Origin: Aerococcaceae bacterium zg-1292
GTDB lineage: Bacteria; Bacillota; Bacilli; Lactobacillales; Aerococcaceae
Direction of reading: 5' to 3'
Assembly: GCA_016126655.1 (NCBI GenBank)
Contig: CP065955.1
Span: forward strand, 1,719,001-1,783,000
DNA length: 64,000 nucleotides
Part shown: positions 22,575 through 62,831 of the stretch, piece by piece
Layout: each line of letters starts with the position of its first letter
Numbering within the stretch: the first letter of the stretch is position 1
Position numbers and translations under genes: made by a program
The notes under the pieces: model-generated
Told to the model about the DNA's origin: nothing
Databases searched by the model: none
What the model saw: only the letters and a program-made list of their open reading frames with translations

Positions 22575-22835
22575 GATTCTGGTTCCCTCGGCTTGGCTTG
22601 ACTTCCACTTCGCATTGCTCTTGAAGCGCCATTGGTGCTTCTACGACCTCTGCTCCAGTGGTTCAAGCCAGTTCAGCCTCACTCACACTATGTTTGATTC
22701 TGGTTCCCTCGGCTTGGCTTGACTTCCACTTCGCATTGCTCTTGAAGCGTCATTGGCGCTTCTACGATCTCTGCTCCAGTGGTTCAAGCCAGTTCAGCCT
22801 CACTCACACTATGTTTTCTCTCGAGGCTGAACGCC
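22575..22835. repeat. Two tandem hairpin repeats upstream of the yihY-family gene
   Basis: Two copies, 121 bp apart (about 22575-22695 and 22696-22812), have TGGCTTGA/TCAAGCCA arms and GGCT/AGCC outer arms. They differ mainly at one base pair of the inner hairpin (GCGCC...GGTGC against GCGTC...GGCGC). A right-arm remnant with CGAGGCTGAACGCCC follows. Confidence 0.85.
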
Positions 22836-58263: not shown

Positions 58264-58274
58264 CAATGGCTCCT

Positions 58275-59080
58275 ATTCTGGTTCGCTTGGGTTGACTTGT
58301 CTCCACTTCACATTGCTCTTGAAGCACCACTGGCGCTTCTACGACCCCTGCTCCAGTGGTTCAAGTCAGAACACCCGCACTCACACCATGTTCTATTCTG
58401 GTTCGTTCGGACTGCCTCGACGTCCACTTCACATTGCTCTTGAAGCGCCACTGGCGCTTCTACGACCCCTGCTCCAGTGGTTCGAGGCAAAACGCCCTCT
58501 CTCGCACTATGTTCTATTCTGGTTCGCTTGGGTTGACTTGTCTCCACTTCACATTGCTCTTGAAGCACCACTGGCGCTTCTACGACCCCTGCTCCAGTGG
58601 TTCAAGTCAGAACACCCGCACTCACACCATGTTCTATTCTGGTTCGTTCGGACTGCCTCGACGTCCACTTCACATTGCTCTTGAAGCGCCACTGGCGCTT
58701 CTACGACCCCTGCTCCAGTGGTTCGAGGCAAAACGTCCTCTCTCGCACTATGTTCTATTCTGGTTCGTTCGGACTGCCTCGACGTCCACTTCACATTGCT
58801 CTTGAAGCACCACTGGCGCTTCTACGACCCCTGCTCCAGTGGTTCGAGGCAAAACGCCCTCTCTCGCACTATGTTCTATTCTGGTTCGTTCGGACTGCCT
58901 CGACGTCCACTTCACATTGCTCTTGAAGCGCCACTGGCGCTTCTACGACCCCTGCTCCAGTGGTTCGAGGCAGAACGTCCTCTCTCGCACTTTGTTCTAT
59001 TCTGATTCACTTGGGTTGACTTGTCTCCACTTCAAAAAATATTTGGGGTGCTCATGCACTGCTACAAACTTTGCTGCAAG
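58275..59080. repeat. Array of seven hairpin repeats (120/121-bp period), rnmV-rsmA spacer
   Basis: The GTTCG (or ATTCAC) box recurs at 58281, 58401, 58522, 58642, 58763, 58884 and 59005. Units are of two types: A with TTGACTTG/CAAGTCA and GGGT/ACCC arms (120 bp), and B with TGCCTCGA/TCGAGGCA and GGAC/GTCC arms (121 bp). The order is A B A B B B then a truncated A. All share a GAAGC-(A/G)-CCACTGGCGCTTC loop hairpin. Confidence 0.95.
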
Positions 59081-59108: not shown

Positions 59109-59669
59109 TTACTCTTCTAACTGCGCTAATACTGCTTCTACTTGCTCTAACGAAATATGATAGACACTCAATTTTTTCTGCAATTGTTTCCCGTTCAAAT
59201 GCCCGATTCGTAGCTGTTCACTCAACCAGGATCGACGTTTCACGGCTTGTGGATGTCCAATGAGCCGCAGCCGGATTAAATCTGACAACTCAATCGTATC
59301 AACTGGGCCAACCTCAGGTGTCATAACATGTGCTAGTGCCTTCAAAATAGTTTCCGGCAATGCATGTTCAATGCCTAAGCTTTTATGCTCCTTACCACTA
59401 TCCGCTTCTTGCTGCGTCAAATAGGCTTGTTTTGCCTGCGGAACTAATGCAGTAACGATACGTCGAATGCGTTCGCCTTGATAATCTGGGTCAGTAAAAA
59501 TAATTATCCCAAACTGTTCACTCGCTGCTACAATTTGTTGTTGCACTGAGCGACTAACAGCTGAACCATTCGTTTCAATCGTTTTGACATAGGGACCAAA
59601 TGTTTCAATCAAACGCTTAGTATCATCCCTACCTTCAACAATAATCACTTCTTGTGGTGGCTTATTCAT
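59109..59669 (-). CDS. rnmV: Ribonuclease M5
   Basis: This 186-aa TOPRIM nuclease matures 5S rRNA. It begins with a TOPRIM motif (EVIIVEGRDDTKRLIETFG), and IIFTDPDYQGERIRRIV holds the metal-binding Asp residues. GKEHKSLGIEHALPETILKAL follows. The start was set at 59669 with GGGAGC upstream; the longer frame adds 11 residues without support. In Firmicutes it normally follows tatD directly, but here a tnpB element separates them. The array of hairpin repeats lies between it and rsmA. Confidence 0.93.
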   Translation of the reverse strand: MNKPPQEVIIVEGRDDTKRLIETFGPYVKTIETNGSAVSRSVQQQIVAASEQFGIIIFTDPDYQGERIRRIVTALVPQAKQAYLTQQEADSGKEHKSLGIEHALPETILKALAHVMTPEVGPVDTIELSDLIRLRLIGHPQAVKRRSWLSEQLRIGHLNGKQLQKKLSVYHISLEQVEAVLAQLEE

Positions 59670-59742
59670 GTATCGGCTCCCATTTAAATAAGTCAAAAGC
59701 ATTTTGCGTTGTCACTTGAGCTACTTTTTCCATATCCGCTAC

Positions 59743-59960
59743 GAAAAATATAAATAAATATCATCATTTCTTATATTTTTACTACGTGACACCTTTCGGT
59801 TATCACTTCCTGTTTCTTCGTGTCCAATCTCGGTAGGAGTATGCTCCACACCTACTATTGTTTGTTATAACACTCCACAGGCTTAAATTCCCCAGTAGCG
59901 ATGGGTACTGATGTCTTTTTTATATCACTTGTGAATAACAAGCTTGTAAATTCTTAGCTG
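59743..59960 (-). ncRNA. Probable TnpB guide (omega) RNA region
   Basis: In TnpB elements the guide RNA overlaps the end of tnpB and runs to the right end, with the guide coming from flanking DNA. This stretch has several short hairpins (for example GGTGT...ACACC and GGAGTG...CACTCC) and ends at the inverted repeat. The placement is inferred from family knowledge. Confidence 0.4.
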
Positions 59961-61110
59961 CGTTGAAATCTCGGTCTAATATAGTACCGCAACACTCGCA
60001 TTTATACGTTCGCTCACTCAATTTTAGTTGTTGTTTCTTATATCCACAACCACTACATAATTTTGAACTTGCATAAAAACGATTAATAACTACTAGCTCA
60101 ATTCCCATTCGTGCACATTTATACTCTAGTTGTTGGCGAATGGTATGGAACTTACAATTGCTTATGGCTTTTGCCAAGTGTTTATTTTTCATCATGCCAG
60201 AAACATTCAAATCTTCAATCACAATCGCTTTCGGCAATTGTTTAACAATATGTGTTGTCGCTTGATGAATATGATTGTTTCGGATATTTGTTAACGAACG
60301 ATGGATTAGCTTAATGTCCTGGATTGTTTTTTGGATATTACAACATTCTTCAATCGGACGTTTCCAGATTGGTTTACGATGACCATTGATGACTTTGAAA
60401 CTTGTTGTATTAGCCGTTAATTGTCTTGATAAATGATGTTGATAACGTCTTAGGCGTTTCGTCAATTGTTTAACACGTTTGGAATAGTTGATGTTGTCAA
60501 CCGTTCCACCATTTGAACACGTCATTAACGTTTTAACACCTAAATCAATACCTATCACTTCATTAGTTAACGATTCATCAAAAGTACAAGGTGCGTCATA
60601 AGTAAACGACACATACCAATATTTTCCGTCATAAGAGATTCGTGGATTGTAATAAAATTGATTTTTACCAATTTTGGGTAACGGTTCAGCGGTCTTTACT
60701 ACGCCTAAACGTTCGCCTTGAAACCCTTTTGGTTTCCAACGGAAACTTTCGTAGTTCACGTAAAAACTCGGGGTCGTACGTGTTTTAGATTTATATCTTG
60801 GTGCTCTAGCTAAACCTTTAATACATTTAAGTTTCGCTGTATTCCAATCTCTAACTGCTTGTTTGGCGACATTACTTCCAACTTCTGCCAACCATGGACA
60901 TTCCGTCTTTTTTAATTGTGTAATTTCTTTACGAATATTTCCCTCGCTAATATACTTTGGTTTCGTTGGGTCTTCTTTGTATGCCTCGTAAGTTTCATGG
61001 TCACGAGTAATCGCATAATTATACGCCCAACGAGCCACACCTGCTGATTTTTTGAACAAGACTTCTTGTTCTGGAGTAGGTAAAAGCCTAATCTTTTTCC
61101 CTTGTAACAT
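59920..61110 (-). CDS. tnpB: TnpB RNA-guided nuclease (IS200/IS605-type)
   Basis: This 396-aa protein is a full-length TnpB. The N-terminal helix-turn-helix region is KKIRLLPTPEQEVLFKKSAGVARWAYNYAITR. The RuvC motifs are IGIDLGVKTLMTCSNG (first Asp), IVIEDLNVSGM (Glu) and LDRDFNAAKNL (last Asp). A zinc finger CSGCGYKKQQLKLSERTYKCECCG lies between the last two. All catalytic residues are intact, so it may still cut DNA guided by RNA. The gene is not disrupted. No transposase gene tnpA is adjacent, so movement would need help in trans. Confidence 0.93.
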   Translation of the reverse strand: MLQGKKIRLLPTPEQEVLFKKSAGVARWAYNYAITRDHETYEAYKEDPTKPKYISEGNIRKEITQLKKTECPWLAEVGSNVAKQAVRDWNTAKLKCIKGLARAPRYKSKTRTTPSFYVNYESFRWKPKGFQGERLGVVKTAEPLPKIGKNQFYYNPRISYDGKYWYVSFTYDAPCTFDESLTNEVIGIDLGVKTLMTCSNGGTVDNINYSKRVKQLTKRLRRYQHHLSRQLTANTTSFKVINGHRKPIWKRPIEECCNIQKTIQDIKLIHRSLTNIRNNHIHQATTHIVKQLPKAIVIEDLNVSGMMKNKHLAKAISNCKFHTIRQQLEYKCARMGIELVVINRFYASSKLCSGCGYKKQQLKLSERTYKCECCGTILDRDFNAAKNLQACYSQVI

Positions 61111-61299
61111 CTTTTACACCCTCAATCAGTTGTCGTTAATTTTCATAAGTCATGCGGAATCTAGCCCACACTCTTAACAATTTGCTATTTAACATCAGTA
61201 CCATTGGTATCAATCCTTTCACTTTATCGTTGAGGATAGTGTACCGCATGGAATTTATTTTTGTAAATATAAGTTATACATTTATTTATATTTTTCTCA

Positions 61300-61745
61300 T
61301 TCACGCTAGAACGCAACTTCTAACGCAGTCTTATTCTCACGAATAGACCTCTCATGCTTTCACATGAGCGTAGACTATATCTTCAACTAGGTTTGTGCCT
61401 AGTTGCCACATTTTTCTTCCGCCCTTAGCTTGCAGTTTTACTCTCCCTCAAGGAGATAGTCGTTGGGGGTCTTCCGTATCTGTTATCAGACTTAGGACTT
61501 TCCCTGCTAAACATCCATTGTTACAGTACTTAGGACTAACGTTTTCTAAGGTTCACTATTTTTATCTCTTAGACACTGATTAGCTTTTGTTTCACCATAT
61601 ACTATCCTTGTTGTTTTTTCTGCTTTCGCACCACTCAGCTTACTGTTTCCAGTTACTGTTTCGGTCACAAGGCTTTAGGAGTTAAAAGCATTTAACGTGG
61701 AGTCTGCACCAATCACTTGATACAGAGGGTATGCTGTTAATATAT
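61300..61745 (-). ncRNA. Group I intron-like core upstream of tnpB
   Basis: On the minus strand a P-like element TTTAGCAGGGAAAG lies at 61499-61512. An R-like CCCCCAACGACTATCTCC is at 61452-61469. A P8-like hairpin AACTAGG/CCTAGTT (61385-61404) is followed at once by the S-like GAAGATATAGTCTACG at 61369-61384, whose TAGTC can pair with GACTA of R to form P7. Three further hairpins follow: CTCATG/CATGAG at 61351-61368, TCTATTC/GAATAAGA at 61329-61347 and CGTTAGAA/TTCTAGCG at 61304-61325. Their order fits P9 to P9.2. The 5' splice site, P1 and P3 were not located. Confidence 0.6.
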
Positions 61746-61771
61746 ATAGATTTATATTAATTTGTATAAAT

Positions 61772-62500
61772 TTATTGCAACAGTTTTGTTACCCAACCTC
61801 TGACTTGAGCCAGGGTTTCTGCTACATAATACACATATCCTGGCTCATTGCGCTTGCCTCGATAAGGTACTGGCGCTAAATACGGCGCATCTGTTTCAAT
61901 TAACAGGCGATTTTCTGGCACAATAAGGGCTGCTTTACGAACATCTTCTGCTTTTTTAAAGGTCAACACACCACTAAAGCTAATATGCATCCCTAAATCT
62001 AAAAATCGCTTGGCTTCTTCTTCATTCCCGCCAAAACTATGCATAATACCACCCGCAGCTGGCACGCCTTCATCCTTTAAAATACGGTATGTGTCCTCGG
62101 TGGCTTCACGATTATGAATCGTAATCGGCAAATGATGTTCTTTGGCAATAGCAATCTGACGACGAAATACTTGCTCTTGTACTGATTTAGGTGCAGTGTC
62201 CCAGTAATAATCTAAGCCGATTTCCCCTAACATTTTTACTTTAGGTAATGTCAACCAGTGCTCTAACTTTTTCTCAAATGCTGCACTATAATTACCAGCT
62301 TCTGTCGGATGACAACCTACAGCACTAATAATTGATTCATATTGTTCACTCAGTGCCAATGTTTTTAAAATCGTAGTTTCATCAAACCCGACGACTGCCA
62401 TATAATGAACGTGCTGTTTTCGTGCTTTTTCAATAATTTCTGCTTCAATTCCCTCGAATTGTTCCGCATTTAAATGCGTATGCGTATCAAAAAGTTTCAT
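61772..62500 (-). CDS. tatD: TatD-family metal-dependent DNase
   Basis: This 242-aa TIM-barrel metalloenzyme belongs to the TatD/YabD family of DNases and D-aminoacyl-tRNA deacylases. The metal ligands are visible in FDTHTHLN, GEIGLDYYWD, TIHNREA, GIMHSFGG and LLIETDAPYLAPVPYRGKRNEP. It is about 10 residues shorter than usual at the C-terminus, ending VTKLLQ, while most homologues extend further. The mobile element begins soon after the stop codon, so the end may have been altered. It follows metG in the conserved metG-tatD-rnmV order. Confidence 0.93.
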   Translation of the reverse strand: MKLFDTHTHLNAEQFEGIEAEIIEKARKQHVHYMAVVGFDETTILKTLALSEQYESIISAVGCHPTEAGNYSAAFEKKLEHWLTLPKVKMLGEIGLDYYWDTAPKSVQEQVFRRQIAIAKEHHLPITIHNREATEDTYRILKDEGVPAAGGIMHSFGGNEEEAKRFLDLGMHISFSGVLTFKKAEDVRKAALIVPENRLLIETDAPYLAPVPYRGKRNEPGYVYYVAETLAQVRGWVTKLLQ

Positions 62501-62831
62501 TATTATTAAAGGCTATGTCCTGTGTCTTCTTACGCACCAAACATATACCCTACTACCTCCATTTCCCTAACTTCAGTCTAAAATTAGCATTCATTGATAT
62601 ATTTGTCAAAACACATTGTGCGACATCGTGCGCTCAGAAATGAATCACTGGAGAAAGATTGCTGATGCGTCCACACGCTTCAAAAACTTTGTGAAGTGGA
62701 GGTCATTTCTGCTCGTCGGAGCCGTTATACACATTGTGCGACAGCGTGCACCTAGAAACAATTCCCTGCTTGCCGCTCGTAAAACAGTAGGAGCCAATCA
62801 CAATGACCAGCTCCCACAATCATTCAAACAA
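62501..62831. repeat. metG-tatD spacer with inverted hairpin repeat and terminator
   Basis: One hairpin repeat in the opposite orientation to the others lies at about 62612-62726. Read on the minus strand it has CAGAAATG/CATTTCTG arms and CCACTTC/CCAGTGATTC boxes. A second end fragment (CACATTGTGCGACAGCGTGC) is at 62729-62752. A terminator hairpin lies at 62790-62814. Confidence 0.75.
62790..62814 (-). terminator. Terminator of metG
   Basis: GGAGCTGGTCA pairs with TGATTGGCTCC using G-U pairs, followed by TACTGTTTT on the minus strand. Confidence 0.75.

What the first reader, a model, noticed from the sequence alone, without database searches (positions are those of the whole stretch)
59743..61745. 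Probable IStron (group I intron plus tnpB) in the tatD-rnmV gap
Upstream of an intact tnpB the minus strand shows P-, R- and S-like group I elements in order, with a P8 hairpin directly before S and three P9-type hairpins after it, ending at the tnpB element's left repeat. Known IStrons combine a 5' group I intron with an IS605-type tnpB and remove themselves from RNA. This copy has no tnpA. IStrons are best known from Clostridium and Bacillus, so one in a Lactobacillales-like genome would be informative.
Basis: partly seen in the sequence, partly recalled or inferred. Interest (0 to 1): 0.75.

Follow-up and report, generated by a model that had tools for sequence, protein, structure and literature searches.

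The report
Self-splicing IStron transposon inside tatD
The finding is real: a 2,056-base jumping gene that carries its own RNA self-splicing intron and an RNA-guided DNA nuclease sits inside the tatD gene; it belongs to a published kind of element (group B IStrons), and its main value is a natural set of nine such copies, in three families, in one genome.

Summary
The IStron reading holds, with corrections. A covariance search finds a group I intron at window 61573-61351(-) (48.5 bits, E 2.6e-10) and, just after tnpB, a RAGATH-18 RNA (69.7 bits), the published guide-RNA scaffold of IS607-type TnpBs. The element is 61791-59736(-), 2,056 bp. It is not in a tatD-rnmV gap: it interrupts the 3' end of tatD. 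Without it, the flanks align gap-free over 444 bases to the tatD-rnmV junction of a genome of the same genus and encode a complete TatD. The ends (TGGG^TAAC...CGTAGCGG^) are those of published group B IStrons. The closest known element, SrISt1 of Selenomonas ruminantium, is 78% identical in the intron. The genome holds ten such introns. Nine belong to three IStron families, and all nine lie in protein-coding genes, in sense orientation. Only the window copy encodes this TnpB, yet two tnpB-less copies keep RAGATH-18 RNAs with different guides. Core helices show strong covariation. Splicing and TnpB activity are inferred, not shown. New member of a known kind.

The parts
59736..61791 (-). Whole IStron, 2,056 bp. 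5' end UAACAAAACUG... after exon ...GGTTGGG (61798-61792); 3' end ...CGTAGCGG before exon ATATGG...
   Evidence: Joined flanks align gap-free over 444 bases to same-genus G002; same ends in two other own-genome copies and in SrISt1
61777..61791 (-). Left end and 5' splice site region; U61791 is the predicted first intron base
   Evidence: Sequence nearly identical at the ends of related copies
61726..61732 (-). Predicted internal guide sequence AUACCCU: pairs GGG^UA of the 5' exon/intron junction (P1). Family 2 in this genome has CGG^UA with UACCG, a compensatory change
   Evidence: Sequence; P1 itself is inferred
61351..61573 (-). Group I intron, Rfam RF00028 match
   Evidence: 48.5 bits, E 2.6e-10; R1 model 169.6 bits
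61442..61461 (-). R element / P7 5' strand GACTA, with P7.1 hairpin
   Evidence: P7 kept in 15/15 sequences; P7.1 has 3 of 4 pairs with double changes
61419..61435 (-). P7.2 hairpin (with P7.1 the IA2 mark)
   Evidence: 4 of 4 pairs with double changes
61385..61404 (-). P8 hairpin
   Evidence: 3 of 4 counted pairs with double changes
61373..61380 (-). S element / P7 3' strand TAGTC
61304..61368 (-). P9, P9.1 and P9.2 hairpins
   Evidence: P9: 5 of 7 and P9.1: 2 of 5 pairs with double changes; P9.2 from sequence
61274..61298 (-). 5' inverted repeat, AU-rich, pairs with the 3' inverted repeat
   Evidence: 5'IR x 3'IR duplex better than 297 of 300 shuffles
59920..61110 (-). tnpB, 396 aa, RNA-guided nuclease; RuvC motifs IDLG (D189), IEDLN (E299), DRDFN (D379), zinc-ribbon cysteines
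   Evidence: Pfam PF07282, PF01385, PF12323; best solved relative 8iaz; motif positions
59807..59881 (-). RAGATH-18 RNA: omega/re-RNA scaffold of IS607-type TnpB
   Evidence: 69.7 bits, gathering 44.9
59744..59759 (-). 3' inverted repeat AUUUAUUUAUAUUUUU; a local direct repeat (59781-59764) could pair with it instead
   Evidence: the local pairing is not better than chance on its own in this copy
59716..59735 (-). Predicted 20-nt TnpB guide (3' exon of tatD); would match the empty tatD site next to TTGGG
   Evidence: Position inferred from IS607 TnpB reRNA boundaries (PMC11061315)
61792..62500 (-). tatD 5' exon
   Evidence: TatD_DNase Pfam; alignment to relatives
59661..59735 (-). tatD 3' exon, ending in the stop codon that overlaps the rnmV start (ATG at 59669)
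   Evidence: Joined reading frame and relatives

Best explanation
A group B (IS607-type) IStron inserted after TTGGG in the 3' end of tatD. When tatD-rnmV mRNA is made, the group I intron, which spans the element from U61791 to G59736, most likely folds with the two AU-rich inverted repeats paired, brings its 3' end to the core, and cuts itself out. This joins ...GGTTGGG to ATATGG... and restores full-length TatD and the overlapping rnmV start. From RNA that is not spliced, the 3' end would instead be kept by TnpB as a guide RNA (RAGATH-18 scaffold plus about 20 nt of tatD exon). That complex would cut tatD alleles lacking the element, so that repair copies the element back in. Shown here: anatomy, exact ends, empty site, covariation and intact joined genes. 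Inferred: splicing, TnpB cutting, and the choice between the two fates. The window copy has lost tnpA. It could move only if an intact IS607 recombinase in the same genome (three family-2 copies) accepts its ends.
For: Group I and RAGATH-18 covariance hits. Gap-free empty site in a same-genus genome. Complete TatD after joining, aligned to relatives, versus premature stop GWVTKLLQ* without joining. Same ends in copies at other loci. Seven other copies restore full-length ORFs with Pfam domains on joining. Covariation, 0/500 shuffles. Ends, target and intron match published SrISt1. RuvC and zinc-ribbon motifs intact in TnpB. IS607 TnpBs use RAGATH-18-derived guide RNAs (PMC11061315). BcISt1 of the same group splices in vivo after GGG (PMC4227781).
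Against: No RNA data. The Rfam score is slightly below the gathering cut-off. P3/P4 were not resolved. Some copies could be splicing-dead and recent. The local hairpin that would compete with splicing is not better than shuffles in the window copy.
Confidence: 0.93

Rival explanations
1. A dead IStron: the architecture is intact but this copy no longer splices, so TatD is made as a slightly shortened protein (GWVTKLLQ end, about 20 residues lost) and the element is tolerated.
For: tnpA is lost; the TatD Pfam domain is still mostly covered without the last 20 residues; Rfam score just under the cut-off.
Against: The counted core helices pair in this copy, including invariant P7. Nine copies in nine genes all lie in sense orientation, and the eight that were joined give intact frames, which is expected if splicing rescues the genes (chance of 9/9 sense orientation about 1 in 512).
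Confidence: 0.1
2. A plain tnpB insertion sequence that landed beside an unrelated stretch or a separate, older group I intron.
For: TnpB alone is common; solitary group IA2 introns related to IStrons exist (PMC4227781).
Against: One gap-free empty site has intron and tnpB inserted together at one point. The same ends recur at other loci and in SrISt1. The inverted repeats on both sides of tnpB pair.
Confidence: 0.01
3. A coding remnant or chance fold without intron function (artefact of AT-rich DNA).
For: None beyond the sub-threshold Rfam score.
Against: Covariation in 26 pairs, 0/500 shuffles, and collapse on sliding by one column; next best hit in the window 10.9 bits against 169.6.
Confidence: 0.005

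Closest known systems
SrISt1, group B IStron of Selenomonas ruminantium subsp. lactilytica TAM6421 (Tourasse et al. 2014; copy on pSRC1, NC_017078)
   Same: Target TGGG; 5' end TAACAAAACTGTT; 3' end CGTAGCGG; intron 78% identical over 533 bases; RAGATH-18 RNA after tnpB (74.7 bits); TnpB 52% identical
   Different: SrISt1 keeps an IS607 tnpA; the window copy has lost it. Host belongs to another class (Negativicutes)
BcISt1, group B IStron of the Bacillus cereus group
   Same: GG target, CGG end, IS607-type ORF B, AU-rich inverted repeats, lost or broken ORF A, ORF-less derivatives; splicing after G shown in vivo
   Different: Not compared directly here; the tnpB-less family-1 derivatives in this genome keep a RAGATH-18 guide scaffold
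EfISt1, group A IStron of Enterococcus faecium
   Same: IStron in Lactobacillales
   Different: IS200/IS605 ends and target, single copy, with ORF A
Clostridium botulinum IStron studied by Zedaveinyte et al. 2024 (Science; own knowledge, not in the library)
   Same: IS607 IStron whose RNA is both intron and TnpB guide, the two being mutually exclusive
   Different: Experimentally characterised; this one is known from sequence only
ISFba1 and related IS607 TnpBs with RAGATH-18 guide RNAs (PMC11061315)
   Same: RAGATH-18 scaffold directly after tnpB, RuvC motifs
   Different: TAM there AGGAG or GAGGG; here TTGGG is predicted from the insertion sites; no intron reported there

Membership tests
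IStron | Group I intron at the 5' end of the element | tested here: met
   RF00028 match 48.5 bits, E 2.6e-10; covariation
IStron | IA2 features: P7.1 and P7.2, three P9 hairpins | tested here: met
IStron | IS ORF(s) placed after P9.2 behind a GAACGA-like motif | tested here: met
   GAATGA directly after P9.2, a one-letter variant of the published list; tnpB follows
IStron | Intron ends coincide with transposon ends; precise insertion without target duplication | tested here: met
   Gap-free empty site, repeated ends
Group B IStron | Inserted after a GG-ending site; starts with U; ends with CGG | tested here: met
   TTGGG^TAAC...GTAGCGG^ATATGG
Group B IStron | Long AU-rich inverted-repeat stem around the ORF region | tested here: met
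   5'IR x 3'IR, 3 of 300 shuffles as good
Group B IStron | IS607-type serine recombinase ORF A (often lost; not required for membership in the 2014 survey) | tested here: not met
   Absent in the window copy; a broken IS607 tnpA remains in the family-1 copy L014. Truncated or missing ORF A is common in published IStrons
IStron | Self-splicing in RNA | not testable with these tools
   Needs RT-PCR or in vitro splicing
IS607 TnpB (RAGATH-18 guided) | RAGATH-18 RNA directly downstream of tnpB; RuvC D-E-D | tested here: met
IS607 TnpB (RAGATH-18 guided) | RNA-guided DNA cutting with a G-rich TAM | not testable with these tools
   TTGGG inferred from insertion sites only

The most novel reading that the evidence does not exclude
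One TnpB, encoded only by the tatD copy, is shared by three IStron-encoded guide RNAs (tatD, a UmuC-type polymerase gene, a GH43 gene). The two tnpB-less IStrons are then parasites of a parasite: they splice on their own and keep a guide RNA so that the borrowed TnpB protects their own insertion sites.
Probability: 0.3. Interest if true: 0.55.

Novelty: new member of a known kind. Interest (0 to 1): 0.42.

Why it matters
The element itself is of a published kind. What is useful is the natural series in one genome: three IStron families, copies with both ORFs, with tnpB only, with scraps and with none, all inside protein-coding genes. It lets one ask whether splicing persists while the guide RNA decays after tnpB is lost, and whether one TnpB can serve guide RNAs of several copies. 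It also corrects gene calls: nine genes in this genome would be annotated as broken although their mRNAs are probably mended by splicing.

Tried and rejected
Placing the element in the tatD-rnmV gap: rejected, the empty site shows no gap and tatD continues after the element. Taking the element as IS605-type: rejected on ends, target and RAGATH-18. A bistable switch in which the 3' inverted repeat pairs either with the 5' repeat (splicing) or locally (guide RNA): the first pairing is better than most shuffles in all nine elements checked (0 to 14 of 300 as good), the second is not in the window copy (79 of 300 as good), so it is kept only as an idea. Finding P3 and P4 by covariation: not resolved. 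Naming the species: a 16S search in named draft genomes gave only fragments, and in plasmid records the listed full-length matches reach at best 90% (Aerococcus, Enterococcus, Bacillaceae), so the host is left unnamed. TnpB tree: the window protein groups with SrISt1, the G090 IStron and a Turicibacter TnpB (96/92), but its own branch is long.

Full report
Observation. On the minus strand, Rfam finds a full-length group I intron match at 61573-61351 (48.5 bits, E 2.6e-10, gathering 50) and a RAGATH-18 RNA at 59881-59807 (69.7 bits, gathering 44.9), the latter directly after an intact tnpB at 61110-59920.

Statistical support. I aligned the core of 15 related introns, from this genome, from relatives and from loci of TnpB relatives in named Clostridia. 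RNAalifold gave 44 pairs. For 42 of them counted separately, 96.0% of cells pair, 26 pairs have changes on both sides (shuffled mean 14.4) and the covariation score is 0.521 against 0.224, with 0 of 500 shuffles as high; sliding by one column drops pairing to about 40%. P7 (GACTA/TAGTC) is invariant in all 15. P3 and P4 were not resolved. A covariance model of this core scores the window 169.6 bits, the next place in the window 10.9; the window was one of its training sequences.

Exact ends and place. Copies at other loci in the same genome share sequence from TTGGG|TAAC to CGTAGCGG. Removing 61791-59736 leaves flanks that align over 444 bases without a gap, 83% identical, to the tatD-rnmV junction of genome G002 of the same genus. 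The joined frame reads ...AQVRGWDMEKVAQVTTQNAFDLFKWEPIHE*, the normal TatD end seen in 18 relatives; unjoined, TatD stops at ...RGWVTKLLQ*. The tatD stop overlaps the rnmV start. So the 'gap' is the element itself.

Which kind. Published group B IStrons (IS607-type) insert after GG-ending sites, begin with U, end with CGG, carry an AU-rich inverted-repeat stem and have often lost ORF A (PMC4227781). All of this holds here, ORF A being missing in this copy. The closest annotated element is SrISt1 on a Selenomonas ruminantium plasmid: intron 78% identical over 533 bases, the same TGGG^TAACAAAACTGTT start and CGTAGCGG end, IS607 transposase and TnpB annotated, TnpB 52% identical. SrISt1 is listed in the 2014 survey. 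The window TnpB has the TnpB/Cas12f-type Pfam domains and its best solved relative is 8iaz. RAGATH-18-derived RNAs are guide RNAs of IS607 TnpBs (PMC11061315).

Copies in this genome. DNA and model searches find ten introns. Family 1 (target TTGGG): the window copy, L014 in a UmuC/ImpB-type polymerase gene (1,128 bp, broken tnpA and a tnpB scar) and L015 in a GH43 gene (743 bp, no ORF). Family 2 (target AACGG): three copies of about 2.4 kb with intact IS607 serine recombinase and TnpB, in a GNAT gene, a LOG-family gene and a Fic-domain gene (the last named from its flanks only). Family 3 (target TGGGG): three ORF-less copies of about 705 bp in a YhcG-type nuclease gene, a response regulator gene and a comGA-like gene. 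For seven of the copies besides the window one, joining the flanks gives an intact open frame with the expected Pfam domain; the Fic copy was not joined. All nine lie in sense orientation. The tenth intron (2171744-2172090) is a degenerate-looking element.

P1. The predicted pairing of the 5' exon end with the internal guide changes in step between families: GGG^UA with UACCC (family 1), CGG^UA with UACCG (family 2), GGG^U with GCCC (family 3). This agrees with the published finding that a group B IStron splices after G.

Guide RNAs. The window TnpB is the only one of its kind in the genome, but RAGATH-18 is present in three copies, at 69.7, 59.9 and 52.7 bits. In L014 all consensus pairs are standard, in L015 one is broken. 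Each copy would have a different guide, the first 20 bases of its own 3' exon.

Distribution. In 76 genomes of the family, 5 have a match to the intron model; three other genomes of the same genus have none. The element also occurs in G090 of the same order inside a comFA-like gene, with a TnpB 50% identical, and in two genomes of one genus of the family inside an rluD-like gene (gene names from the reading frames, not tested by profile). Twelve of 65 TnpB-relative loci from named genomes have the intron upstream. IStrons in Lactobacillales are not new: EfISt1 of Enterococcus faecium was published in 2014.

Mechanism. Shown: anatomy, ends, empty site, covariation, intact joined genes. Inferred: self-splicing that restores tatD and the overlap with rnmV; TnpB loaded with the 3' end of unspliced RNA, cutting element-free tatD next to TTGGG; mutual exclusion of the two fates, as reported for a C. 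botulinum IStron by Zedaveinyte et al. 2024 (own knowledge). The pairing of the 5' and 3' inverted repeats is well above shuffles in all elements tested; a competing local hairpin is not in the window copy.

Verdict. A sound first-stage finding and a new member of group B IStrons. Interest is moderate, carried mostly by the nine-copy series in one genome.

Noticed in passing
window 58273-59008: Array of 6.1 copies of a 121-base unit (90% match) between rnmV and ksgA, with an internal palindrome GAAGCGCCACTGGCGCTTC; near-copies of the core sit at window about 22621-22767 and at G000 1488.6 kb.
   Followed up: partly
G000:C1:2171744-2172090 (L087): A tenth group I intron (54.7 bits, above the Rfam cut-off) with the same core, followed by scraps that look like a decayed tnpB; probably a remnant of a fourth IStron.
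   Followed up: partly
L019, L020, L021 (G000 446.8, 2194.2, 1918.3 kb): Three near-identical ORF-less IStrons of about 705 bp that Rfam misses at E 0.01 but a family model finds at about 123 bits; no RAGATH-18.
   Followed up: partly
L016, L017, L018 (G000 1512, 952, 264 kb): Three 99%-identical complete IStrons with intact serine recombinase and TnpB, probably still mobile; target AACGG, no RAGATH-18 match, so a different guide RNA family.
   Followed up: partly
window 62520-62830: Between metG and tatD lies a stretch with repeated ACATTGTGCGAC motifs, not analysed.
   Followed up: no
phage collection, e.g. AP018714 20699-20927: Sequences 79% identical over about half of the IStron intron occur in large Enterococcus phages, with further matches in Staphylococcus and Lactococcus phages; presumably phage group I introns, a possible source of the intron half.
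   Followed up: no
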